A DNA stretch of 10,852 nucleotides, taken from positions 410-11,261 of the forward strand of contig QHWL01000109.1 in NCBI GenBank assembly GCA_003222555.1, written 5' to 3'. The DNA is from Acidobacteriota bacterium (GTDB taxonomy: Bacteria > Acidobacteriota > Vicinamibacteria > Vicinamibacterales > CAVVIG01). Below are positions 884-10,852 of this stretch, in pieces. Under the pieces are notes generated by a model that had not been told where the DNA came from, made no database searches, and saw only the letters and a list, made by a program, of their open reading frames with translations. Made by a program: the position numbers and the translations under genes. Position 1 is the first letter of the stretch; each line of letters opens with the position of its first letter.

Positions 884-913
884 TTGACAGTTTCACGGCG
901 GTCGCTTTATGGT
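884..913 (+). promoter_or_regulatory. Sigma-70-like promoter candidate for the cobalamin operon
   Basis: A perfect TTGACA -35 box lies at 884-889 and a TATGGT -10 box (4 of 6 consensus bases) at 908-913, with an 18-base spacer. Transcription would then begin near 920, a few bases before the first base of the riboswitch P1 helix at 925. That fit with an independent landmark is the main support. A second TTGACT at 860-865 has no matching -10. About 160 bases between the terminator and this promoter hold nothing else I recognise. Confidence 0.55.
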
Positions 914-924
914 TCGTGACATCG

Positions 925-1107
925 CGTCGGTACTTTCACGCATGTAGTGGGAGTCGAAAGAGGGAATCCGGTTCAAAGCCGGAACTGCCCCGCAGCGGTG
1001 AGCGGGAACGAAAGCCGTCATACGCACTAGCCCAAAGGCTGGGAAGCGACGGCGAGTAGGTCCGGCGGCTACAGCCGCCCGCCCGCAAGTCCGAAGACCT
1101 GCCGACG
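925..1107 (+). promoter_or_regulatory. Cobalamin (adenosylcobalamin) riboswitch aptamer
   Basis: The closing helix P1 pairs 925-932 (CGTCGGTA) with 1100-1107 (TGCCGACG), eight pairs including one wobble. Inside it are the family hallmarks. GGGAATCCGG at 962-971 opens a hairpin (967-971 with 979-983). CCCGC at 989-993 pairs with GCGGG at 1002-1006 around the loop AGCGGTGA. A helix joins 1014-1019 (GCCGTC) with 1048-1053 (GACGGC), and a GC hairpin lies at 1064-1079. The 3' end carries the B12 box AGTCCGAAGACCTGCC at 1088-1103, 14 of 16 against AGYCAGGAGACCTGCC. Bases 1108-1112 (TCACC) could pair with the GGTGA of the loop at 997-1001, but I cannot assign the L5-L13 kissing loop with confidence. 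It precedes a TonB receptor and seven cobalamin-linked genes and should repress them when adenosylcobalamin is bound. Confidence 0.95.
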
Positions 1108-1112
1108 TCACC

Positions 1113-1146
1113 CGACGAGCGTCTCCCGGTGATGGACGCTCAGTCG
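1113..1146 (+). promoter_or_regulatory. Hairpin just downstream of the aptamer
   Basis: CGACGAGCGTC (1113-1123) pairs with GACGCTC (1135-1141) and, past a bulged A at 1142, GTCG (1143-1146). This gives an 11-pair stem around an 11-base loop. It begins six bases after P1 closes, where regulatory hairpins of cobalamin riboswitches usually sit. No T-run follows, so it is not an intrinsic terminator. Its loop contains GGTGA, the same pentamer as the aptamer loop at 997-1001, so both could compete for TCACC at 1108-1112. It may be a switching element; that is inference from base pairing only. Confidence 0.5.
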
Positions 1147-1280: not shown

Positions 1281-1356
1281 TGAGTCCTTCCCCTTCGCGC
1301 CGATCTCTGGGCGCGTCGGCGCCCCCAAGGCCGCGAGGGGCGGCAGGAGGGACTCA
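1281..1356 (+). promoter_or_regulatory. Ribosome-binding-site sequestering helix (riboswitch expression platform)
   Basis: TGAGTCCTTCC (1281-1291) pairs over 11 positions with GGAGGGACTCA (1346-1356), with one G-T wobble. The 3' arm contains most of the Shine-Dalgarno AGGAGG (1345-1350) and ends on the A of the ATG at 1356. After a 6-base bulge (1340-1345) the helix continues for 8 pairs (1292-1299 with 1332-1339). A GC hairpin inside it pairs 1309-1314 with 1319-1324. This should block translation initiation, so the riboswitch probably acts at translation. A second pyrimidine run, CCCTTCCT at 1195-1202, could also pair with the Shine-Dalgarno region and might take part in an alternative fold. 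From 1147 to 1280 I see only small hairpins, for example 1179-1192, and no gene. Confidence 0.65.
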
Positions 1357-1673
1357 TGATCGTCGTTCGTGCAGCCGTCGTCTCCGCGCTCGCACTCGTG
1401 CTCTGGCTTCACGCCGCGCCCGCGAGCGCCGCACCCGATCAACCCCGATCACAGCTCGTCGTCCACGTGGTTGATGCCGCCGGTGCGCCGATCGGCGGCG
1501 CACGCGTGTCGGTCTATGCCTCCCAACCTGGCGACGCCAGAAGCGGCGCGACTAATCGCGATGGGACGCGCGTCTTTGTCGATCTTAACCCTGGCAGGTA
1601 CCTCGTCGACGTGCGACGTCCGCCGCTCGTCGCGTCACGCTGGATCCCGGCGCATCTCGCGATCTGCTGCTGA
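1356..1673 (+). CDS. 5' part of frameshifted TonB receptor: signal peptide plus carboxypeptidase-regulatory-like domain
   Basis: This 105-residue frame begins with a clear Sec signal peptide (residues 1 to about 25, cleavage after APASA). A beta-sandwich domain of the carboxypeptidase-regulatory type follows (about 32-87), with the pattern VVDAAGAPIGGARVSVY and the end motif LNPGRYLVDVR. In acidobacteria and Bacteroidota such a domain commonly sits at the N-terminus of TonB-dependent receptors. The frame then turns to non-homologous sequence and stops at 1671-1673. The expected continuation (RRVTLDPGASRDLLLTLAVG) is found in another frame, open from 1589, that leads straight into the receptor plug. 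One base appears to be missing at about 1611-1640, so this is the front of the next entry and not an independent protein. The start is fixed by AGGAGG at 1345-1350, which lies in the sequestering helix. Confidence 0.8.
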   Translation: MIVVRAAVVSALALVLWLHAAPASAAPDQPRSQLVVHVVDAAGAPIGGARVSVYASQPGDARSGATNRDGTRVFVDLNPGRYLVDVRRPPLVASRWIPAHLAICC

Positions 1674-1681
1674 CACTGGCG

Positions 1682-3775
1682 GTGGGCAGCTTCGAAACGC
1701 ACGTCGTCGTCACCGCGTCGGACACCGTCGAACCGCGAGACGACATATCGAAGGCTCTGAGCGTGGTCGATCGACAGGAGATCGAGGCGCGGAATGTCAA
1801 TACCGTGAGCGATGCGATCCGCGAGGTCCCGGGCGCGCGCATCGAACAGCTCGGCGGACTCGGATCACAAACCTCCATCCGGCTGCGCGGCCTTCGCAGC
1901 CAGGACACCGGTGTGCTGATCGACGGCGTGCCCTTTCGCGATTTATCGGCGACCCAGGGAGACGCGACGAGCTTTGTCTCGGATCTGCTCCTCACAAACG
2001 TCGACCGTGTCGAGGTGCTCCGGGGATCGGGCGCCGACGTATACGGATCGAACGCCGTCGGCGGTGCGGTCAACGTGATCTTGCGCCCGGGTGGCGAGCC
2101 TACGAGCGGCGAAGCGCTCGTGGAAGGCGGCGGCCTAGGTTTGGTGCGCACACGCGGCCAGGTTGGGGGCGGCTTGAGCAACGGGCATGCGACGTACAGC
2201 GCGGGCGCGTCCGGCCTGAACATGGCGCGCGGGATCGACGGACGCGATCGTGCGTGGAATACCAGCCTGCAAGCGCGCATGACGGCTCGTCTCGGCGGCA
2301 CTACGGTGTCGGCGTTTCTGCATGGCACGCGCGCCTTTACGGCTCTCAACGCGACGCCCCTCGGCATCGGCACACCAACGGGGAGCGGTGCGCTCGTCGC
2401 GATCCCTCTCAGTCGTGACCTGCTCGCCCAATACCAAAGCGGGACTCCCGTTGCACGTCTCGACATTGGATCGGCGAACGTTATTCCCTCGGCGGACGAT
2501 CCCGACAACACTCGACGATCGAATTCGAGCCTCGCCTCGATCGAGCTGACCAATCACGTCTTCGATCGATTGGCGTACTCCGTCTCGTACCACCGTCTCT
2601 CGACGACACGGAACTTCGAAAACGGTCCCCTGGGCGTCGGCTTTCAGCCGGCTGGGATGTCGCGAGCGGACTTCGACGGCGGCATCAATACGTTCCGCGC
2701 CAAAAGCGATTTCCAGCTCGGAGCCTCGCAGCTGATCACGGGCGCGTACCAGGTCGAGCGCGAGCGCTACGCGAGCGCGTCGATCCCGGTTAGTCCGGCT
2801 CCTCCGTCGTCGGTGGGCATCGCGGAATGGACCCAAACAGCATCGATTCAAGATCGTGCGAGGATTTTCGACGGCTCGTTTCAACTGACCGGTGGCCTCA
2901 GGGCGCAGTTCTTCTCGCCGCGGACGCCCCGGTTCGCGCCCATAACGAGCGCGCCCTACCAGAGCGCCACGTTTCAAGCACCGCCCAGCGCCTATACCGG
3001 CGACGCCTCAGCCGCCTACGTCGTATCAGCCACCAAAACCAAGCTGCGCGCGCATGTCGGTAGCGGCTACCGCGAACCATCGCTGTTTGAGCGCTTCGGT
3101 ACCTCGTTCGGTAGCCGTGGTTATTCGATCTACGGCGATCCACGGCTCGGACCGGAGCGATCGATAAGCGTCGATGTCGGTGTCGATCAGGAAGTGCCGA
3201 GGGGGCGATCGCGCCTTTCAACCAGCGTTTTCACCACGCACCTCGACCATGTGATCGTGTTCGATGCATCTGGTGTGATTACGCGGGCGACTGATCCTTT
3301 CGGTCGCGCAAGTGGGTACCGGACGATTCCCGGAGGGCGAGCCTCGGGTGTCGAGCTGTCGGCGCGCACCGAGCCGACTCCAGGGTTGATCCTCACAGGG
3401 TCGTACACCTTGACGACCGAATCGTCCAGCGACGGCCCCGTCGATCCCTCGCTCAGCTTCGGCGTGTCTCGGCATCAGGCTGCTGTGCGGGCCATCTCCC
3501 ATGTCGGCTCCCGCCTTGAAATGGCCGCGCTCTGGACGGCGGCCAGCTCGTACTTGGCGCCGATCTCTGACGCGGCGACGTTTGTCAGCCGGAGCTATCG
3601 TTTCCGCGGAGTGCGCCGCGTTGATGTGAGCGCCAGCTACACGCGCCCATTCGCCGCCCGCCGTGGCGTGCGAGTCTTCGGCAGACTCGACAACATCACG
3701 AATCAGGTGTACTTCGAAAGCGGATTCAGGACGCCGGGACATGTCGCGGCGCTCGGCGTCGCTGTGGAGTTCTGA
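1682..3775 (+). CDS. btuB: TonB-dependent outer-membrane receptor, probable cobalamin/corrinoid transporter (main part of frameshifted gene)
   Basis: This frame encodes 697 residues from a GTG at 1682. That GTG has no ribosome binding site and the product would lack a signal peptide, so it is almost certainly not the native start; the native start is the ATG at 1356. Residues 5-13 (ETHVVVTAS) resemble a TonB box, compare DTLVVTA of BtuB. The plug domain spans about 20-135, with IRLRGLRSQDTGVLIDGVP and VDRVEVLRG followed by YGSNAVGGAVNVIL. The rest is a beta-barrel ending in an aromatic residue (VAVEF), as outer-membrane proteins do. The barrel is larger than that of E. coli BtuB. Substrate assignment rests on the upstream cobalamin riboswitch and the downstream btuF/btuC/cob genes. 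The stop lies 6 bases before btuF. Whether the gene is truly broken or the base loss is a sequencing error cannot be decided here. Confidence 0.9.
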   Translation: MGSFETHVVVTASDTVEPRDDISKALSVVDRQEIEARNVNTVSDAIREVPGARIEQLGGLGSQTSIRLRGLRSQDTGVLIDGVPFRDLSATQGDATSFVSDLLLTNVDRVEVLRGSGADVYGSNAVGGAVNVILRPGGEPTSGEALVEGGGLGLVRTRGQVGGGLSNGHATYSAGASGLNMARGIDGRDRAWNTSLQARMTARLGGTTVSAFLHGTRAFTALNATPLGIGTPTGSGALVAIPLSRDLLAQYQSGTPVARLDIGSANVIPSADDPDNTRRSNSSLASIELTNHVFDRLAYSVSYHRLSTTRNFENGPLGVGFQPAGMSRADFDGGINTFRAKSDFQLGASQLITGAYQVERERYASASIPVSPAPPSSVGIAEWTQTASIQDRARIFDGSFQLTGGLRAQFFSPRTPRFAPITSAPYQSATFQAPPSAYTGDASAAYVVSATKTKLRAHVGSGYREPSLFERFGTSFGSRGYSIYGDPRLGPERSISVDVGVDQEVPRGRSRLSTSVFTTHLDHVIVFDASGVITRATDPFGRASGYRTIPGGRASGVELSARTEPTPGLILTGSYTLTTESSSDGPVDPSLSFGVSRHQAAVRAISHVGSRLEMAALWTAASSYLAPISDAATFVSRSYRFRGVRRVDVSASYTRPFAARRGVRVFGRLDNITNQVYFESGFRTPGHVAALGVAVEF

Positions 3776-3781
3776 ACAGTC

Positions 3782-4663
3782 ATGCGACTCCTCATTGCTC
3801 TAGCCGTGTTCCTCCACGGTCTCGGGGGACTCGACGTGCAGGCTCCGACCGCCGGATCGGCGTCGCGCGCGCCGATGCGGATCGTGTCCTTGGCGCCAAG
3901 CGTCACGGAATTGCTCTTCGCGCTCGGCCTCGGCGATCGCGTCGTGGGCGTGACCAGTTATTGTCGGTATCCCCCGGAGGTGATCAGGATTCCCAAGATC
4001 GGCGGCTATCTGACGCCCAGTTATGAGGCTCTCGCCTCCCTTCGGCCGGATCTGGCAATCCTGCTCCCTGAACACGACGAGGTACGGGGCCGCGTGGAGG
4101 CGTTGGGAATTCAGGTACTGCGCCTCGATCAAACCAGCGTCGCCGGCATACTCGGCAGCGCGACCGCGACGGGCGAGCGGTGCGGCGCGACCCGCCAGGC
4201 GGCGTCACTCCGTGCGGAGCTGCAAACGCAACTCGATCAGATCGCTCACACGATCGCCGGACGTTCCCGGCCACGCGTGGTCATTTGTATGGGTCGGAAC
4301 GCCGATCCGAATGGGTTCCGATCGATGTCGGCGGCGGGGCCGGGTGGGATCTATGACGACCTGATCGCGCGCGCCGGTGGGACGAACGCGATTGGGCCCG
4401 GCCCGATCTTGCACCCGTCACTGTCGGCCGAGGCGCTCTTGCGGATCGATCCGGACGCCATCGTGGAATTCGCCCCGGGGAGTGGCCCACCAGAGCGTTT
4501 GCAGGCCGGGTGGCGATCGTTATCGTCGCTGCGCGCCGTGCGCACGGGTCGCGTGTACATCTTCACCCAGGATTTTCTCACGATTCCTGGGCCGCGCTTG
4601 ATTCGGTTCGTCGGCGAACTGGCGCGCGTGCTCCATCCTGACGCGGCTTGGAGACACCCATGA
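3782..4663 (+). CDS. btuF: BtuF-like periplasmic corrinoid-binding protein
   Basis: The 293-residue protein has a signal peptide (about 1-21, cut near DVQA) and is the substrate-binding component of a class II ABC importer. The family start MRIVSLAPSVTELLFALG lies at residues 32-49, followed by GVTSYCRYPPEV, a counterpart of the E. coli BtuF SSYSDYPP region. Then comes KIGGYLTPSYEALASLRPDLAI, the usual end of lobe one. Lobe two carries PGGIYDDLIARAGGTNA and ends with GPRLIRFVGELARVLHP. Length is normal for the family. It would accept corrinoid from the receptor and deliver it to the BtuC permease. GGAG at 3766-3769 lies upstream of the ATG. The 3' end shares ATGA with the oxygenase gene, so the two are translationally coupled. 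The siderophore-binding relatives of this fold are the main alternative, but context favours corrinoid. Confidence 0.9.
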   Translation: MRLLIALAVFLHGLGGLDVQAPTAGSASRAPMRIVSLAPSVTELLFALGLGDRVVGVTSYCRYPPEVIRIPKIGGYLTPSYEALASLRPDLAILLPEHDEVRGRVEALGIQVLRLDQTSVAGILGSATATGERCGATRQAASLRAELQTQLDQIAHTIAGRSRPRVVICMGRNADPNGFRSMSAAGPGGIYDDLIARAGGTNAIGPGPILHPSLSAEALLRIDPDAIVEFAPGSGPPERLQAGWRSLSSLRAVRTGRVYIFTQDFLTIPGPRLIRFVGELARVLHPDAAWRHP

Positions 4664-5379
4664 CCGAGTTGACCAGAGAAGGATTTCGCGTCGTGTCCGA
4701 CATCCTGACAAAGACCGACCTGTCTGGAATGCGCGACGCCATCACCGAGACAATCGACCGCGTGGCTCGCGCCCTGCGCACCTCGTTCGATACCAGCCAC
4801 CCGGACGCGCCGTTCGAAGAGCGCCTCGATCGGATCGCCCGGCACGATCGCGCGTACGCCCTCGCCCTATTCCATGCCGTCATGGCCGACGCGCAGCGCG
4901 ATCCACGCATCGCGCGCGTCGCTGATGCACCGCGGCTCGCGTCGATCCTGAAAGACGCCGTGGCACCGGCGACGGTCACGGGCCATGTCGTCCGGACGCG
5001 CGCCGTCGTACCATCGCTCTCCTCACATCGAAGCCCCTGGCATCAGGACGTCCTCGAACGGACCAGCGATGGCCGAGGGTGCGGGTCGGTCCGCGTGGCG
5101 TGCTGGATGCCGCTAGGCGATGTGGACGAGCGATCCGGCGCGCTGGAAGTCATCCCGGGTGCGTGGGAGCCGCTGCCGCACCGGAACGATGACGGACATT
5201 TCTCCATTCCAGACGAGAGCTTGCCGTCCGGGCGGCGATCGGTGGTGACGCTCTGTCGCGGCGACGTGCTGCTTCTGGATCGATTCGTGCCGCATCGGTC
5301 AACGGCGGCAACCCCCCCGCGAGCGCGATGGGCGGTCGTCGCCTGGGTCAAGGCCGCGACACATGCGCCCCAACACTGA
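4660..5379 (+). CDS. Phytanoyl-CoA dioxygenase (PhyH)-like Fe(II)/2-oxoglutarate oxygenase in the cobalamin operon
   Basis: The 239-residue protein has no signal peptide, so it is cytoplasmic. It shows the PhyH-type double-stranded beta-helix signature. The iron ligands are H128 and D130 (PWHQDV) and H212 (DRFVPHRS). R223 lies 11 residues after the distal His, the same spacing as H264 and R275 in human PHYH, where the Arg holds 2-oxoglutarate. Between them are MPLGDVDERSGALEVIPG and CRGDVLLLD, also typical of the family. The active site looks complete, so it should be an oxygen-dependent hydroxylase; its substrate is unknown. I chose the ATG at 4660 because it overlaps the btuF stop as ATGA and has GGAG at 4649-4652. 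An in-frame TTG at 4648 is less likely. The 3' end overlaps btuC by 17 bases. Lying between btuF and btuC, it may act on the incoming corrinoid or on a lower-ligand precursor, which is inference. Confidence 0.88.
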   Translation: MTELTREGFRVVSDILTKTDLSGMRDAITETIDRVARALRTSFDTSHPDAPFEERLDRIARHDRAYALALFHAVMADAQRDPRIARVADAPRLASILKDAVAPATVTGHVVRTRAVVPSLSSHRSPWHQDVLERTSDGRGCGSVRVACWMPLGDVDERSGALEVIPGAWEPLPHRNDDGHFSIPDESLPSGRRSVVTLCRGDVLLLDRFVPHRSTAATPPRARWAVVAWVKAATHAPQH

Positions 5380-6385
5380 ACGTACCGACCGCGTGTTGGT
5401 CGCGGCAAGCGTGTTCTCGACAGGTGTCATCGTCGCCGCCGTGTTCGTCGGCGTGCGATCGATCGCGTGGTTCGACGTGCTTCACGGCGTACCGGGGAGC
5501 GTCGACGCGGACATCCTGTGGCGGATTCGGCTCCCACGTGTGTGCCTGGGGTTCTTGAGCGGCGCCGTGCTGGCCGTCGGCGGCGTGGCCTTACAAGCGG
5601 TGTTCCGCAATCCGCTCGCCACGCCGTACACCCTCGGCATTTCGGCCGGCGCGGCGGTCGGCGCCGCCTTGTACATGAAAGCGGGTTTGAGCCTTACCGT
5701 GGGCGGCATCCCGGGGCTGGCCATCGCCGCCTGGGTCTCCGCCGCCTTCGCCACGGCGCTGATGTTCGGGCTCACGCGCGCAGGCCGCGGGTTCTCCACC
5801 GCGACACTCCTGCTGACAGGTGTCGCCCTCAGCTTCTTCTTCTCGAGCGTCGTCCTCTTCATCCAATACATCGGCGATGTCACCACTTCGTTTCGCGTCG
5901 GTCGCTGGTTGATGGGCGGGTTGGAGGTCGTGGGCTTCGCGCCCGTCTGGCAACTGGCGCCCTTTGCGACGATCGGTCTCGCCACGGTGATCGCTGCACG
6001 ACGCGACCTGGACCTCCTGGCCATGGGGGACGAGAGCGCCGCGAGCCGCGGTGTCGTGGTGAGGCGTGTGAAGGTCCGACTCTTGGTCGCGGTGTCCACG
6101 ATGGTGGCCGGTGTGGTGGCTACCTGCGGCCCGATCGGGTTTGTCGGATTGATCGTGCCTCACGTGGGACGACTGGTGGTCGGACCGAAGCACGATCGGC
6201 TCGTGCCTTTGACGCTGTTGGGTGGCGGCACCTTTCTCGTACTGTGCGATACGGCGGCGCGAACTGTGATAGCGCCAGTGGAAATTCCCGTGGGTGTGAT
6301 CACGGCCCTGCTGGGGGGACCGTTTTTCCTGGCGCTGCTGCTGCGACAGCGCGCCAGCGCGGAACGAGAGCGAGGTGTCGGGTGA
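5363..6385 (+). CDS. btuC: BtuC/FecCD-family ABC importer permease
   Basis: The 340-residue, very hydrophobic protein has multiple transmembrane segments. It shows the FecCD family landmarks: RLPRVCLGFLSGAVLAVGG followed by VALQAVFRNPLATPYTLG near residues 55-95, then the coupling region GPIGFVGLIVPHVGRLVVG with a following HDRLVPL near 253-282. The C-terminal pattern is EIPVGVITALLGGPFFLALL. It forms the membrane channel that would receive corrinoid from BtuF. The ATG at 5363 lies inside the end of the oxygenase gene, and the stop overlaps the GTG of the adenosyltransferase gene (GTGA). No ATPase gene (BtuD) lies anywhere in this window, so the energising subunit must be encoded elsewhere or be shared with another importer. 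Iron-siderophore permeases belong to the same family; the riboswitch context supports corrinoid. Confidence 0.92.
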   Translation: MRPNTERTDRVLVAASVFSTGVIVAAVFVGVRSIAWFDVLHGVPGSVDADILWRIRLPRVCLGFLSGAVLAVGGVALQAVFRNPLATPYTLGISAGAAVGAALYMKAGLSLTVGGIPGLAIAAWVSAAFATALMFGLTRAGRGFSTATLLLTGVALSFFFSSVVLFIQYIGDVTTSFRVGRWLMGGLEVVGFAPVWQLAPFATIGLATVIAARRDLDLLAMGDESAASRGVVVRRVKVRLLVAVSTMVAGVVATCGPIGFVGLIVPHVGRLVVGPKHDRLVPLTLLGGGTFLVLCDTAARTVIAPVEIPVGVITALLGGPFFLALLLRQRASAERERGVG

Positions 6386-6957
6386 GCATTGCGACAATGC
6401 GAGGCGACGGCGGACAGACGAGCCTCATCGGCGGTCGGCGCGTGTCCAAGGGCAGCGGGCGAATAGAGGCTATCGGGACGATCGACGAGCTGGGCGCTCA
6501 GCTTGCGTTCGCACGGGCGATCTGCCCGCACCGGGAGACGGGTGCATTCATGAGGGACGTGCAGCGACAGCTCTTTGCCATCGCCGAGACACTGGCGACC
6601 GAGCCTGCACCGACGGACGCACCTCCATCGCTGGATCGGACACTTGTCGACGCCCTGACGGAGCGCGTCCGTCGAATGGAATCCATCGAGGGCCTGCTGC
6701 TGGACTGGGCCTTACCCGGCGAGGATGCGCCCGCCGCGGCGTGTGAGATGGCGCGCACCACGTGCCGGCGGGCGGAGCGCTCGATCGTGCGCCTGCAGGA
6801 GGCCGGAGAGCCGATCGATCCTTCGGCGCTTGCGTATCTGAACCGTCTGGCGGATGTCTTGTGGCTCATCGGTCGCTTTCTCGAACACGAGTCCAAGGTG
6901 GACGCGCGGCTGCGCCCGAAAGAAGACGGGGGTTTGCGATGGTCGCGCGCATGGTGA
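6382..6957 (+). CDS. pduO: PduO-type ATP:cob(I)alamin adenosyltransferase
   Basis: The enzyme moves the 5'-deoxyadenosyl group of ATP onto Co(I) corrinoid. The N-terminal ATP motif T-x-x-G-D-x-G-x-T-x-L is complete at residues 5-15. It is followed by GGRRVSK and the VDEL-type segment EAIGTIDELGAQLAFAR. The C-terminal half has CRRAER (128-133) and YLNRLADVLWLIGR, with the Arg, Asn and Asp positions that form the active site in PduO and human MMAB. At 191 residues it is the stand-alone catalytic domain. The GTG at 6382 is preferred over the ATG at 6397 because the later start would remove T5 of the ATP motif; GTG also overlaps the btuC stop as GTGA. It overlaps cobT by 19 bases. The LPGEDAP segment differs slightly from the usual LPGG. 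This step lets imported cobinamide enter the CobU/CobS route. Confidence 0.93.
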   Translation: MSIATMRGDGGQTSLIGGRRVSKGSGRIEAIGTIDELGAQLAFARAICPHRETGAFMRDVQRQLFAIAETLATEPAPTDAPPSLDRTLVDALTERVRRMESIEGLLLDWALPGEDAPAAACEMARTTCRRAERSIVRLQEAGEPIDPSALAYLNRLADVLWLIGRFLEHESKVDARLRPKEDGGLRWSRAW

Positions 6958-8057
6958 CCGGCGGCGAGGGAAAGACGGTCGAGGAACTGCACGAGCACTT
7001 GACGCGCGTCATCGCCGGAGTCCGGCCAGTCGATCCGCTGTGCGTGGCGCGCGCACGCGATCGTCTGGACCGCCTAACCAAACCATGCGGGAGCCTTGGA
7101 CGCCTCGAGGAAATCGCCGCCCGGATTTGCGGCATTCAGGCGACAACGCGGCCGAGCGCGACAAAACGTCTCGTCATCGTGTGCGCCGCCGATCACGGCG
7201 TCGCCGTCGAAGGCGTAAGTGCGTACCCTTCCGCCGTCACGCCGCAAATGGTCGCGAATTTCGTGCGTGGCGGCGCCGCGATCAATGCCCTGGCCCGATC
7301 GGTGGGCGCTGACGTGTGGATCGTCGATATCGGCGTCGCTGGCTCGATCCCGGCCAGCGGTGACGCCGCGCAATTGGTCGCGCGGCGCATCCGCGAAGGC
7401 ACGCGGAACATGCTGCGAGAGCCAGCGATGTCAGAGAGCGAGATGCTGCAGGCGATGGCCGTCGGCGTCGAACAGGCCACACGTGCGGCCGACCAAGGGG
7501 TGGAGCTCCTCGGCATCGGCGACATGGGCATTGGCAACACAACGGCGGCGAGCGCGATCACCGCGGCTGTTATGAGGCTGCCGCCGCAGCAGGTCACGGG
7601 ACGTGGCACCGGCGTCGACGAGGCCACGCTAATACGCAAGGTGGACGTCATCGAACGAACCCTCGCCACGCATCGCCCGCGTTCGGATCGCCCGCTCGAG
7701 ATCCTGCAAACCGTCGGCGGCCTCGAGATCGCCGCACTCTGCGGAGTCTGCCTGGGTGGAGCCGCGCGTCGTCTGGTCGTGATGACGGACGGCCTCATTA
7801 CCACCGCCGCCGCGCTGCTGGCTGTGGAACTCTGTCCGGCGGTTTCCGAGTACGTGTTTGCCGCGCACCTCTCCCCAGAACCAGGCCACGCGGTTCAACT
7901 CGAGCGACTCGGGGCGCGTCCGCTGTTGCACCTCGACATGCGGCTCGGCGAAGGCACCGGGGCGGCGCTCGCCATGACCGTGGTAGGAGCCGCATGCGCC
8001 GCGTTCAACGAGATGGCGACGTTTGAATCGGCGGGTGTCTGCGAAGGGCCATGCTGA
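6939..8057 (+). CDS. cobT: Nicotinate-nucleotide--dimethylbenzimidazole phosphoribosyltransferase
   Basis: CobT converts a benzimidazole base and nicotinate mononucleotide into alpha-ribazole phosphate, the lower-ligand half of cobalamin. The 372-residue product has the full set of family blocks: KPCGSLGRLEEIA near the N-terminus, CAADHGVAVEGVSAYPS, FVRGGAAINALAR, EGTRNMLREPAMS, LLGIGDMGIGNTTAASA, TGRGTGVDEATL, TVGGLEIAALCG and HLDMRLGEGTGA. E338 in the last block corresponds to the catalytic Glu317 of Salmonella CobT. The ATG at 6939 follows GGGGG closely; another in-frame ATG at 6951 gives a protein four residues shorter and cannot be excluded. The frame is open further upstream, but that part lies inside the adenosyltransferase gene. 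The last 7 bases overlap cobS. No gene for making dimethylbenzimidazole (bluB) is in the window. Confidence 0.97.
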   Translation: MVARMVTGGEGKTVEELHEHLTRVIAGVRPVDPLCVARARDRLDRLTKPCGSLGRLEEIAARICGIQATTRPSATKRLVIVCAADHGVAVEGVSAYPSAVTPQMVANFVRGGAAINALARSVGADVWIVDIGVAGSIPASGDAAQLVARRIREGTRNMLREPAMSESEMLQAMAVGVEQATRAADQGVELLGIGDMGIGNTTAASAITAAVMRLPPQQVTGRGTGVDEATLIRKVDVIERTLATHRPRSDRPLEILQTVGGLEIAALCGVCLGGAARRLVVMTDGLITTAAALLAVELCPAVSEYVFAAHLSPEPGHAVQLERLGARPLLHLDMRLGEGTGAALAMTVVGAACAAFNEMATFESAGVCEGPC

Positions 8058-8770
8058 CGCGAATCCTCGCAGCGCTGGCGTTACTGACACGTATTCCGGT
8101 TCGCCGCCCCGCGCAAGCGACGCCCTTGCTGCCGGTCATCGGAGCACTCGTTGGCGTCGCGCAAGTGTTCGTCCTTCATCTTCTCGCGCCGTTCCTGCCG
8201 CCGCTTCTGCTCTCGGTCAGCCTTCTTGCCGTGGCAGCCTGTCTGACTGGTGCGCTCCATTTGGACGGGTTGGCGGACACAGCCGATGGGTTTGGGGGCG
8301 GGCACTCACGTGAAGAGACCTTGCGGATCATGCGCGATCCCGCCATCGGTACGTACGGCGCTGTTGCCGTGATGCTCATGCTGATGGCTCGGGCAAGCGC
8401 GCTCAGCACGCTGATTGAACGGCGTGCGGCGGGTCCGTTTTTGTTGCTGGCGCCGGCGCTGAGTCGCTGGACGATGGTGGCGCTCGGCCACGCATTGTCG
8501 TATGCGCGGCCAGAAGACGGCCTCGGATCCCTCGCCGGAACCGTCACTCGCCGTCAGCTCGCGCTCGCGACGGCAATCACAGCCGCCGTGAGCGTCGCCG
8601 CACGAGGCCAGTACGCCATCGCCGCCTGGGGCGCGGCGATCGGCGTGACTGTCATCTGCGGACGGATCTTCGCCCGCCGCTTGGGTGGATTCACCGGGGA
8701 CACGCTTGGCGCGAACAGCGAGCTGACCGAGGCCGCCGTGCTCTTAACCGGTGTCGTGCTGACCCGCTAA
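8051..8770 (+). CDS. cobS: Adenosylcobinamide-GDP ribazoletransferase (cobalamin synthase)
   Basis: CobS is the inner-membrane enzyme that joins adenosylcobinamide-GDP to alpha-ribazole phosphate, giving adenosylcobalamin phosphate. The 239-residue protein begins with the usual ALLTRIPV stretch. Its metal-binding signature is H70-L-D72-G-L-A-D76-T-A-D79-G, followed by FGGGHSREETLRIMRD and AIGTYG. Near the C-terminus is LGGFTGDTLGANSELTE, the second conserved block. The rest is rich in hydrophobic segments. Length is normal for the family. The ATG lies 7 bases inside the end of cobT, and AAGGG at 8044-8048 sits rather close to it, so translational coupling is likely. The product still needs a phosphatase (CobC in enterobacteria), which is not encoded here. 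Confidence 0.97.
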   Translation: MLTRILAALALLTRIPVRRPAQATPLLPVIGALVGVAQVFVLHLLAPFLPPLLLSVSLLAVAACLTGALHLDGLADTADGFGGGHSREETLRIMRDPAIGTYGAVAVMLMLMARASALSTLIERRAAGPFLLLAPALSRWTMVALGHALSYARPEDGLGSLAGTVTRRQLALATAITAAVSVAARGQYAIAAWGAAIGVTVICGRIFARRLGGFTGDTLGANSELTEAAVLLTGVVLTR

Positions 8771-9352: not shown

Positions 9353-9443
9353 CTTTTTGCCCTGCTCACACGCCCAAACTAATTTCGAGTCCAGGGCCAA
9401 CGAACGTTCTGATACAGTCACGCAAGAACCCAGAGGAGGTGTC

Positions 9444-9938
9444 ATGTCTGACAAGTTGAAGGCTTTCGTGGGAATCGGGATCGCTGTGAGCTGGTCCGGC
9501 CTTCTCATCGCGCAAGGCGTGGTGACGCAGCGCAACCTTTCTCTGGCGATGGCGAAGACGATTGCCGAAGCCGCACTCGCGGAATGCAAGGCGAAAGGGT
9601 TCAATACTTCCGCGGCGGTGGTCGACCGCGCCGGCCAGGTGCTCGTGATCATGCGGGACGAGCAGGCGACTGCACAGACAGCCGAAATGGCCCGGCGGAA
9701 GGCTTATACCGCGCGCATGTTTCGAATCACAACGATGGAGTTTCAGAAACGCACGACAGAGGATCCGGCGCGCGCGGCTCAGCGCGATCTTGCGGACATT
9801 CTCGCCCTGAGTGGAGGAGTACCTGTCCAGGTCGGCAACGACACAATCGGAGCTGTCGGCAGTGCGGGTTCCACACTGCAACAGGATGACGCCTGCTCCA
9901 AAGCGGGCGTCGCGAAGGTGGCGGACCTGTTGAAATAA
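9444..9938 (+). CDS. Exported or membrane-anchored GlcG/HbpS-like (DUF336) protein
   Basis: The 164-residue protein has a short charged start, then a hydrophobic segment (about 7-23) that is either a signal peptide ending near LIAQG or a membrane anchor. The rest is a GlcG/HbpS domain: LSLAMAKTIAEAALAECKAKG, then SAAVVDRAGQVLVIMRDEQA, AEMARRKAYTA, and near the end SGGVPVQVGNDTIGAVGSAGS with DDACSKAGVAKV. The same fold forms the C-terminal domain of Salmonella PduO and the haem-responsive HbpS, so tetrapyrrole binding is plausible but not shown by the sequence alone. The start is decided by AGAGGAGGT at 9432-9440 just before the ATG. It lies 111 bases after cobU with its own strong ribosome binding site; whether it is in the cobalamin transcript is uncertain. 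I found no good promoter in the gap. It ends 10 bases from the convergent phosphofructokinase gene. Confidence 0.85.
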   Translation: MSDKLKAFVGIGIAVSWSGLLIAQGVVTQRNLSLAMAKTIAEAALAECKAKGFNTSAAVVDRAGQVLVIMRDEQATAQTAEMARRKAYTARMFRITTMEFQKRTTEDPARAAQRDLADILALSGGVPVQVGNDTIGAVGSAGSTLQQDDACSKAGVAKVADLLK

Positions 9939-9958
9939 TCACGAAGATTCAACCCGGT
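9925..9958. terminator. Weak hairpin between convergent genes
   Basis: ACC (9925-9927) and GTTGAA (9929-9934) pair with TTCAAC (9948-9953) and GGT (9956-9958) across a small internal loop, making a 9-pair interrupted stem. It covers both stop codons of two convergent genes, where a bidirectional terminator is expected. There is no T-run on either side and the loop is long, so support is modest. Confidence 0.25.
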
Positions 9959-10347
9959 CCTCGGCGGCGCGTTTCGGCTCCATCGGGGATCGGCACGCGC
10001 TCTCCCAACTCGTCCATCGCGAGCGGCGGCGGCTCGGCAGCCATCAGGTACTCGAACTCGCGGCGAAACTGTTCCGGCGACACGTGTGCCGTCGCGGCCA
10101 GCTTCGCCAACTCGAGGGAATCCTCGAAGTCGTCGCGGCGCAGGCGGATCATGTACCGGCGTGCAATCGCGTACCGAGTGGACGTGACATCGACCAGACG
10201 GATGCGCGTGCGTCCCGTCTCACTATCGATCATCTGTCCGAACGGCACCGGCACGAAGTGGCCTCCCTGAATCGAGATCATCGCGGCGTTGCCGCCGGCC
10301 ACCAGATACTTGGCCGCGCAATAGCCGAGGTCGCGCGTGTACTCCAT
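9949..10347 (-). CDS. 3' part of frameshifted 6-phosphofructokinase gene
   Basis: This frame gives the C-terminal part of a long-type phosphofructokinase. The open frame continues upstream of the Met at 10347 to about 10398, adding AKNIGYELRCADPIPFD before MEYTRDLGYCAAKYL. GYELRCADPIPFDMEYTRDLG is the conserved region that supplies an Arg to the sugar-phosphate site. It continues with GGNAAMISIQGGHFVPVPF, RIRLVDVTSTRYAIARRYMIRLRRDDFED, and a charged C-terminus. The ATG at 10347 is an internal Met, not a native start. The preceding part of the enzyme lies in another frame (next entry), and one base seems to be missing at about 10396-10410. The gene is convergent with, and functionally unrelated to, the cobalamin operon. 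Confidence 0.8.
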   Translation of the reverse strand: MEYTRDLGYCAAKYLVAGGNAAMISIQGGHFVPVPFGQMIDSETGRTRIRLVDVTSTRYAIARRYMIRLRRDDFEDSLELAKLAATAHVSPEQFRREFEYLMAAEPPPLAMDELGERVPIPDGAETRRRGPG

Positions 10348-10852
10348 GTCGAAGGGAATCGGATCGGCGCAGCGCAGCTCGTAGCCGATGTTCTTGGCCG
10401 CGAGCGCGCAGCGACTTGCGCCTTGAGAATCTCGCCGATATTCACTTCTCCGATGCGGAGGTGGCCGTGAGGGTCGCGTTCGACCTCGCGAAGCCCCTCG
10501 AGATCCTCTGGCGCCACATCGAGGACGACGCCTTCGGCGATGATGGCGACGCCATCGGGCCGGCCGTAGCTCAGGCGCTTGATGATGGCGCCCGCGAGCG
10601 AATCGACGATGGCCTGGACTCGAATCGGCTTGGGGAACTCCTCCGAGGTGAGCGTCAACGTCGCCCCCGCCGCCTTGCCGATACCGAGGGCCAGGTGTCC
10701 CGCCTTACGCCCCATCGCGATCACGAAGTACCACCGCGAGGTCGTCCTCGCGTCAACCATGAGATTTTTGACGATCTCGGCGCCGAAGTGGCGCGCCGTC
10801 TGGTACCCAAAGGTGTCGACGTAGGGCGGCAGATCCAAGTCGTTTTCGATGG
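10278..10852 (-). CDS. Middle part of 6-phosphofructokinase, running off the window (frameshifted)
   Basis: The enzyme phosphorylates fructose 6-phosphate to the 1,6-bisphosphate in glycolysis. At the right edge the frame reads IENDLDLPP, the place of the catalytic TIDND motif, then YVDTFGYQTARHFGAEIVKN. Next comes FVIAMGRKAGHLALGIGKAAG, containing the substrate-binding MGR, then SEEF and LSYGRPDGVAIIAEG. DLEGLREVERDPHGHLRIGEV and NIGEILKAQV follow. After about 10400 the reading becomes non-homologous because of the apparent frameshift, although the frame stays open to 10278. The N-terminus, including the GGD motif, is outside the window, so ATP versus pyrophosphate as donor cannot be settled. 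The family resemblance suggests the pyrophosphate-dependent or related long group. Where the family usually has TIDND, this copy reads IEND. Confidence 0.82.
   Translation of the reverse strand, partial: IENDLDLPPYVDTFGYQTARHFGAEIVKNLMVDARTTSRWYFVIAMGRKAGHLALGIGKAAGATLTLTSEEFPKPIRVQAIVDSLAGAIIKRLSYGRPDGVAIIAEGVVLDVAPEDLEGLREVERDPHGHLRIGEVNIGEILKAQVAARSRPRTSATSCAAPIRFPSTWSTRATSAIARPSIWWPAATPR

What the first reader, a model, noticed from the sequence alone, without database searches (positions are those of the whole stretch)
4660..5379. A complete Fe(II)/2-oxoglutarate oxygenase wired between btuF and btuC
Sequence shows H128-x-D130, H212 and an Arg at +11 (R223), the full PhyH-type metal and 2-oxoglutarate set. 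The gene overlaps btuF by ATGA and btuC by 17 bases, downstream of a cobalamin riboswitch. I know of no PhyH-family enzyme with an established role in corrinoid uptake or salvage. Inference: it could modify incoming corrinoids (for example oxidative trimming or dealkylation of side chains or upper ligands), process a lower-ligand precursor for CobT, or protect cobalamin handling under oxygen. Its placement in the transport block favours an act on the imported corrinoid.
Basis: partly seen in the sequence, partly recalled or inferred. Interest (0 to 1): 0.82.

Follow-up and report, generated by a model that had tools for sequence, protein, structure and literature searches.

The report
Oxygenase paired with vitamin B12 importer
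A bacterial oxygen-using enzyme sits inside, and is inherited together with, a vitamin B12 importer in several uncultured bacteria, which suggests an undescribed step that chemically processes imported B12-type molecules.

Summary
The window carries an intact 239-residue PhyH-family Fe(II)/2-oxoglutarate oxygenase (4660-5379) between btuF and btuC, in a riboswitch-headed corrinoid uptake and salvage operon (btuB-btuF-phyH-btuC-pduO-cobT-cobS-cobU). The linkage recurs: in all 4 genome loci found with a close homologue, phyH is followed by (btuD-)btuC; in metagenomes, 29 of 118 homologue clusters share contig length and source with a close BtuC or BtuF, against about 1 expected per list. PhyH-bearing BtuC and BtuF form clades apart from those of PhyH-less operons, while flanking genes of one PhyH-less operon are as close to the window as those of a PhyH-bearing one. 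One locus holds the cassette in another backbone with a non-homologous adenosyltransferase. So btuF-phyH-(btuD)-btuC behaves as a cassette beside adenosyltransferase and nucleotide-loop genes. In the window's own order, cobT was found only in the 3 PhyH-bearing genomes; CbiZ, CbiB and BluB were not found in them. Best reading: the enzyme oxidises the corrinoid that its importer delivers, so that the salvage enzymes can use it. The reaction is inferred, not shown. I found no published description in the searches made.

The parts
911..1120 (+). Cobalamin riboswitch (RF00174) heading the operon
   Evidence: 106.6 bits against gathering score 31.5, full model 1-189
1682..3775 (+). btuB-like TonB-dependent receptor; its N-terminal part lies in another frame upstream (about 1332-1646)
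   Evidence: Plug and beta-barrel Pfam domains; best solved-structure match is BtuB, over residues 8-139 only; frame break
3782..4663 (+). btuF-like periplasmic binding protein of the PhyH-linked clade
   Evidence: PF01497; closest solved structures are haem- and B12-binding proteins; clade support 98/98
4660..5379 (+). PhyH-family Fe(II)/2-oxoglutarate oxygenase, 239 aa; no signal peptide by eye (no predictor was run)
   Evidence: PF05721; invariant H128, D130, H212, R223; model and fold match
5363..6385 (+). btuC-like permease of the PhyH-linked clade
   Evidence: PF01032 283 bits; clade support 100/99
6382..6957 (+). PduO-type ATP:corrinoid adenosyltransferase
   Evidence: PF01923; TIGR00636 over cut-off
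6939..8057 (+). CobT, lower-ligand phosphoribosyltransferase (exact start uncertain)
   Evidence: PF02277 443 bits; TIGR03160 over cut-off
8051..8770 (+). CobS, cobalamin-5-phosphate synthase
   Evidence: PF02654
8772..9332 (+). CobU, cobinamide kinase and guanylyltransferase
   Evidence: PF02283
9357..9938 (+). HbpS/GlcG-like protein at the 3' end; membership in the operon uncertain
   Evidence: PF03928; no match in the other loci compared

Best explanation
The gene encodes an intact, probably cytosolic Fe(II)/2-oxoglutarate oxygenase that works as the first enzyme behind a dedicated corrinoid importer. Shown: intact invariant active-site residues; operon context; recurrence; a btuF-phyH-(btuD)-btuC cassette next to an adenosyltransferase and nucleotide-loop genes in two different operon backbones. 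Inferred: the importer delivers a corrinoid that the cell cannot use directly; the oxygenase hydroxylates it, using O2 and 2-oxoglutarate, so that a group falls away or a block is removed; the product is adenosylated (PduO or CobA) and finished by CobU, CobT and CobS. The most attractive single reaction is oxidative opening of the nucleotide loop, for example at the ribose carbon that carries the phosphate, giving a cobinamide-type product that CobU accepts. That would be an O2-dependent counterpart of CbiZ remodelling. The general claim (acts on the imported corrinoid) carries the confidence below; the specific loop-opening reaction I put at about 0.25.
For: Active-site set invariant in 46 of 46 aligned sequences. 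Close homologues (52-58% identical) in 3 further genome loci, all followed by (btuD-)btuC and salvage genes; riboswitches on L002 and L003 and on the G104 contig that carries its btuB-btuF half. BtuC tree: the 4 PhyH-bearing rows are one clade, 100/99; BtuF 98/98; with contig-matched metagenome rows, 21 PhyH-bearing against 23 PhyH-less BtuC rows split once (99). PhyH and BtuC distances correlate, r 0.97, n 20. PhyH-less L046 has PduO/CobT/CobS/CobU/BtuB 54/61/49/58/49% identical to the window, against 54/60/44/54/43% in PhyH-bearing L003 and 50/62/50/64% (plus BtuB 47% in L059) in PhyH-bearing L004/G104, but BtuF/BtuC only 34/44% against 52/62% in L003. L002 holds the cassette in another backbone with CobA instead of PduO. 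In the own order, cobT occurs only in the 3 PhyH-bearing genomes. CbiZ and CbiB were not found in 4 of 4 PhyH-bearing genomes.
Against: No biochemical evidence and no structure with a ligand. PhyH-less operons of the same backbone exist (L046, L047), so the oxygenase is not needed for corrinoid salvage as such. The salvage-gene tree itself weakly groups the PhyH-bearing loci (76/82), so the swap rests on depth of divergence more than on conflicting topology. Of 8 contigs that the BtuC and BtuF lists share, only 2 have a listed PhyH; one without, 40,917 bases, has BtuC 74% and BtuF 68% identical to the window's, so a PhyH-less member of the clade is possible. Correlated distances can come from shared descent. 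BtuF and BtuC score below NCBI's B12-specific cut-offs, so the cargo is inferred from context.
Confidence: 0.55

Rival explanations
1. Upper-ligand remover: the oxygenase hydroxylates the Co-bound alkyl group (methyl- or adenosylcobalamin), releasing an aldehyde and reduced cobalamin for PduO or CobA, an O2-dependent counterpart of the human CblC/MMACHC step.
For: An adenosyltransferase is present in all 4 genome loci, PduO in three and CobA in L002. The gene sits at the transport step.
Against: Would not need CobU/CobT/CobS, yet these accompany it in 4 of 4 genome loci. The known dealkylation chemistry is reductive or thiol-based (recalled).
Confidence: 0.13
2. Lower-ligand enzyme: it makes or trims the base (for example a benzimidazole) that CobT activates.
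For: CobT is in the operon. BluB was found in 0 of 4 PhyH-bearing genomes and, over the cut-off, in 0 of 193 class genomes (118 of 193 have weaker, nitroreductase-like matches).
Against: CobT-bearing operons without PhyH exist in the same class, also without BluB over the cut-off. The oxygenase tracks BtuF and BtuC more closely than CobT.
Confidence: 0.12
3. The transporter carries something other than a corrinoid (a haem, siderophore or metal chelate), and the oxygenase releases or degrades that ligand; the B12 operon is only its regulatory home.
For: The best solved-structure match of BtuF is a haem-binding protein and that of BtuC is the haem permease HmuU. BtuF and BtuC are below NCBI's B12 equivalog cut-offs. 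An HbpS-like haem-domain gene lies downstream.
Against: Cobalamin-type riboswitches head the PhyH loci. B12-specific BtuF and BtuC structures are also among the matches. Corrinoid salvage genes adjoin it in two backbones. The HbpS-like gene is not found in the other loci compared.
Confidence: 0.1
4. A hitchhiker or moonlighting oxygenase with a small-molecule or protein substrate unrelated to corrinoids (for example redox protection).
For: PhyH-family substrates are very diverse (the titles include terpenoid, antibiotic, amino-acid and acyl-CoA enzymes). No function has been shown.
Against: Overlapping genes, recurrence in two operon backbones, and co-inheritance with the transporter.
Confidence: 0.1

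Closest known systems
PhyH family oxygenases (PF05721): PtlH, human PHYH, SnoN/SnoK, EctD
   Same: Pfam domain, double-stranded beta-helix fold, HxD...H metal set and 2-oxoglutarate arginine
   Different: 15-19% identity for those named; none is recalled to act on corrinoids; this clade is tied to a corrinoid importer
CbiZ corrinoid remodelling (amidohydrolase that opens the nucleotide loop; passages of PMC6461909 seen)
   Same: Proposed purpose: let a salvager rebuild an imported corrinoid with CobU/CobT/CobS
   Different: Unrelated protein; oxidative instead of hydrolytic; CbiZ and CbiB not found in these genomes
Import-then-oxidise systems such as PhnY*/PhnZ for aminoethylphosphonate (passages of PMC8316502 seen) and TauD/AtsK for organosulfur (recalled)
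   Same: Nutrient assimilation that begins with a 2-oxoglutarate dioxygenase; that such genes lie beside importers is recalled
   Different: Cargo is a cofactor precursor, not a phosphorus or sulfur source; the oxygenase sits inside the transporter genes
Corrinoid uptake and salvage operon btuB-btuF-btuD-btuC-pduO-cobT-cobS-cobU (L046, L047)
   Same: Same backbone, riboswitch and salvage enzymes
   Different: Lacks the oxygenase and has a different BtuF/BtuC clade

Membership tests
PhyH family (PF05721) | Profile match over the curated cut-off | tested here: met
   33.8 bits against 22 for the window protein; L002 50.1 and L003 43.9 bits
PhyH family (PF05721) | HxD...H metal set and C-terminal arginine for 2-oxoglutarate | tested here: met
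   H128, D130, H212, R223 invariant in 46 of 46; their roles are recalled from the family
PhyH family (PF05721) | Double-stranded beta-helix fold of the family | tested here: met
PhyH family (PF05721) | Fe(II)/2-oxoglutarate-dependent oxygenation | not testable with these tools
   needs the purified protein
CbiZ | PF01955 domain | tested here: not met
   Pfam scan at E 0.001 lists only PhyH for the protein; works-like claim only
BluB | TIGR02476 match | tested here: not met
   0 NCBIfam families at E 0.001 for the protein
Vitamin B12 importer BtuFC | Pfam families of the binding protein and permease | tested here: met
   PF01497 93.8 bits, PF01032 283 bits
Vitamin B12 importer BtuFC | NCBI B12-specific equivalog cut-offs | tested here: not met
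   BtuF 72.4 of 234 bits; BtuC 206.8 of 461 and 194.5 of 334 bits; so corrinoid cargo rests on context
Cobinamide salvage operon | Adenosyltransferase, CobT, CobS, CobU under a cobalamin riboswitch | tested here: met
Complete ABC importer | Own BtuD ATPase in the operon | tested here: not met
   no BtuD match in the window or in L003; present in L002 and L004

The most novel reading that the evidence does not exclude
This would be the first Fe(II)/2-oxoglutarate oxygenase known to me that is dedicated to corrinoids: an O2-dependent way to remodel or unlock imported cobamides, replacing CbiZ-type hydrolysis or CblC-type dealkylation, coupled to its own BtuFC importer clade and spread between bacteria as a cassette.
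Probability: 0.45. Interest if true: 0.88.

Novelty: new variant of a known kind. Interest (0 to 1): 0.73.

Why it matters
Many bacteria live on scavenged cobamides, and the enzymes known to make a scavenged corrinoid usable are few (CbiZ, adenosyltransferases, CobU/CobS/CobT). A transporter-coupled oxygenase would add an O2-dependent step to that list. It would also hint that some bacteria reach a corrinoid pool that others cannot, and give a concrete enzyme to test with a short list of substrates.

Tried and rejected
Rejected: (1) chance neighbour, because of recurrence. (2) BluB or DMB shortage as a specific cue: BluB is over the cut-off in 0 of 193 class genomes, so its absence does not mark PhyH genomes. 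(3) Functional swap with CbiZ: CbiZ was also not found in the 5 PhyH-less, CobT-bearing genomes searched (of 6; G019 was not searched), so there is no anti-correlation. (4) Mobile carriage: no relative in viral contigs or plasmids. (5) Sequence search for a solved relative of the oxygenase: one chance-level match. (6) The single-sequence scan of genome contigs found nothing; the alignment scan found 9 loci, of which 6 are 26-28% identical Alphaproteobacterial proteins whose ORF lists show no window-gene match other than phyH; the ABC-transporter look of their neighbours is my reading.

Limits: the protein searches list only the best 120 hits, so 219 of 339 PhyH hits, and most BtuC and BtuF hits, were never seen. 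Contig matching rests on equal length and a shared source, not on contig names; it used 118 PhyH, 118 BtuC and 119 BtuF clusters (the window's own clusters P0001, P0121, P0241 and two without a contig length dropped). Chance matches averaged 0.54 and 0.89 per list (maximum 4 and 5 over 300 shifts). Its sensitivity is low: the window's own adjacent genes carry three different contig lengths (2487, 1344, 4741). By hand count, 8 of 28 PhyH clusters with a contig of 10 kb or more are matched and 20 are not, among them P0004 (72% identical, 25,468 bases); and 6 of 8 contigs shared by the BtuC and BtuF lists have no listed PhyH. Non-matches therefore neither show nor exclude PhyH or transporter genes elsewhere. 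In the G104 genome the operon is split over two contigs (L059 with riboswitch-btuB-btuF, L004 with phyH onward), so its btuF-phyH junction is inferred. L002 is binned as Elusimicrobia; misbinning was not excluded. RF00174 was not found in the L002 genome; its riboswitch matches RF01482, 56.6 bits against 50. The PhyH tree root is on a long outgroup branch, and the fork holding 120 rows has support 83. The BtuB tree does not reject holding three PhyH-bearing rows together (p 0.17). De novo corrin genes other than CbiB were not searched.

Full report

The linkage recurs in genomes. An alignment-based scan of the species genomes returned 9 loci; 3 are close homologues (L002, an Elusimicrobia MAG; L003 and L004, Acidobacteria MAGs; 52-58% identical), and 6 are 26-28% identical Alphaproteobacterial proteins in other surroundings. 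In the three close loci phyH is followed by (btuD-)btuC, an adenosyltransferase, and cobT, cobS and cobU in varying order. The btuF-phyH junction is seen directly in the window, L002 and L003. In the L004 genome (G104) it falls on a contig break: a riboswitch-btuB-btuF half is on another contig, and that BtuF belongs to the same clade. Riboswitches head L002 (RF01482) and L003 (RF00174). Within the class, 3 of 193 genomes carry the clade (G000, G104, G139; six further genomes gave weaker matches, E 2e-18 or worse, to other proteins). A draw of 396 from the phylum gave 1, the window's own, and a draw of 294 from the phylum of the L002 genome gave 1, its own. So the clade is rare among sequenced species.

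The linkage recurs in metagenomes. The protein search found 339 homologues, of which 120 are listed. Comparing contig lengths and sources with the listed BtuC and BtuF relatives, 17 of 118 PhyH clusters match a BtuC cluster and 14 a BtuF cluster (union 29 of 118). Length-shifted controls averaged 0.54 and 0.89. For contigs of 3 kb or more the matches are 16 and 8, against 0.08 and 0.10. In a tree of 123 clade proteins the four B12-linked members lie in both main halves, and their common ancestor covers 120 of 123 rows (support 83, rooted on a long outgroup branch), so the linkage is probably old in the clade.

It behaves as a transporter cassette. I hand-picked 20 class-typical B12 loci from the BtuC matches; on the stretches fetched, 20 of 20 lack phyH and the salvage genes, and 19 of 20 show the order btuD-btuC-btuF (the other is cut short). 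The three PhyH-bearing class genomes each also keep such a class-typical BtuC, so the PhyH operon is a second one. In other orders of the class, PhyH-less operons with the same salvage backbone exist: L046 and L047 read btuB-btuF-btuD-btuC-pduO-cobT-cobS-(histidine phosphatase, seen in L047)-cobU. The flanking genes of L046 are as similar to the window's (BtuB 49, PduO 54, CobT 61, CobS 49, CobU 58%) as those of PhyH-bearing L003 (43, 54, 60, 44, 54%), with L004/L059 at 47, 50, 62, 50, 64%; but BtuF and BtuC are not (L046 34 and 44% against L003 52 and 62%). By path length the window's salvage genes lie 1.14 from L046 and 1.39 from L003, whereas its BtuC lies 1.12 from L003 and 2.81 from the nearest PhyH-less row. 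Trees: PhyH-bearing BtuC 100/99 and BtuF 98/98; salvage genes group the PhyH-bearing loci only weakly (76/82); BtuB is not one group with L002 included, and the other three are not rejected as one (p 0.17). L002 keeps the cassette (BtuF 58, PhyH 54, BtuC 62%; BtuD 61% to L004) in a different backbone (BtuB 27, CobT 44, CobS 37, CobU 40%) whose adenosyltransferase is CobA, not PduO. Among 20 PhyH-BtuC pairs (17 contig-matched, plus window, L003, L004) the distances correlate at r 0.97 (permutation p 0.0002), though shared descent also contributes to this.

What it implies. CobT occurs in 9 of 193 class genomes at E 1e-20, and within the window's own order only in the 3 PhyH-bearing ones. In PhyH-bearing genomes CbiZ was found in 0 of 4, CbiB in 0 of 4 (within 0 of 9) and BluB in 0 of 4, although three of the four are drafts of limited or unstated completeness. 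They look like cobinamide or cobamide salvagers that cannot rebuild the aminopropanol arm. An oxygenase bound to the importer and beside an adenosyltransferase and CobU/CobS/CobT in 4 of 4 genome loci is best explained as acting on the incoming corrinoid. I favour oxidative processing that yields something CobU, CobS and CobT can finish. Hydroxylation at the ribose carbon carrying the phosphate would collapse to cobinamide phosphate, a CobU substrate; this step is chemical inference. Upper-ligand removal and lower-ligand chemistry are the main rivals. The BtuF of the four PhyH-bearing loci has a tyrosine at the position of a B12-contacting tryptophan of E. coli BtuF (contact and wild-type residue recalled; alignment, where the E. 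coli chain itself shows tyrosine), which fits corrinoid binding but proves nothing.

Results against. PhyH-less operons of the same backbone exist without it; 6 of 8 contigs shared by the BtuC and BtuF lists have no listed PhyH, the closest being 40,917 bases with BtuC 74% and BtuF 68%; P0004, a 72% identical PhyH on a 25,468-base contig, has no listed BtuC or BtuF partner; BtuF and BtuC miss NCBI's B12 cut-offs; the BtuC best match in solved structures is a haem permease. No anti-correlation with CbiZ or BluB was found.

Literature. Searches pairing phytanoyl(-CoA) with cobalamin riboswitch, btuF, cobinamide or cobamide found 0 papers. Two broader searches found one paper, whose passages describe an ordinary B12 operon. 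A four-term search gave 3 papers and a Vicinamibacter-cobalamin search 7; of these only the listings were seen, and none looks related. So I know of no description, within this open-access library. Passages on CbiZ (PMC6461909) and PhnY* (PMC8316502) were read, found through the listings; the other literature statements are recalled.

Noticed in passing
window 1332-1682: The N-terminal part of btuB lies in a different frame from the rest; L003 btuB aligns on both sides of a break near 1646-1664, L046 on the later side. Sequencing error or real break not decided.
   Followed up: partly
window 9949-10838, minus strand: A phosphofructokinase-like gene appears as two overlapping ORFs in different frames (10278-10838 has the PFK domain; 9949-10347 looks like its continuation by eye).
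   Followed up: no
window 9357-9938: HbpS/GlcG-like protein at the 3' end of the operon with a possible N-terminal membrane segment (by eye); no match in the other loci compared.
   Followed up: no
L026 3900-4577 and, by eye, L032, L033, L036: The class-typical B12 locus carries a diphthamide-synthase-like ATP pyrophosphatase (PF01902 in L026) near or between btuF-like genes.
   Followed up: no
L002 9532-10515: An asparagine-synthase-like protein (PF00733) lies between cobS and a second btuF-btuC-btuD set.
   Followed up: no
L005-L010: 26-28% identical PhyH proteins in Alphaproteobacteria; in several of these loci the neighbours look like a sugar-type ABC transporter (identities of neighbours by eye).
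   Followed up: no
window 5363-6385 and L003: No btuD in the PhyH operon of the window and L003, though both genomes have one in their class-typical B12 locus (L026, L028), so the importer may borrow an ATPase.
   Followed up: partly
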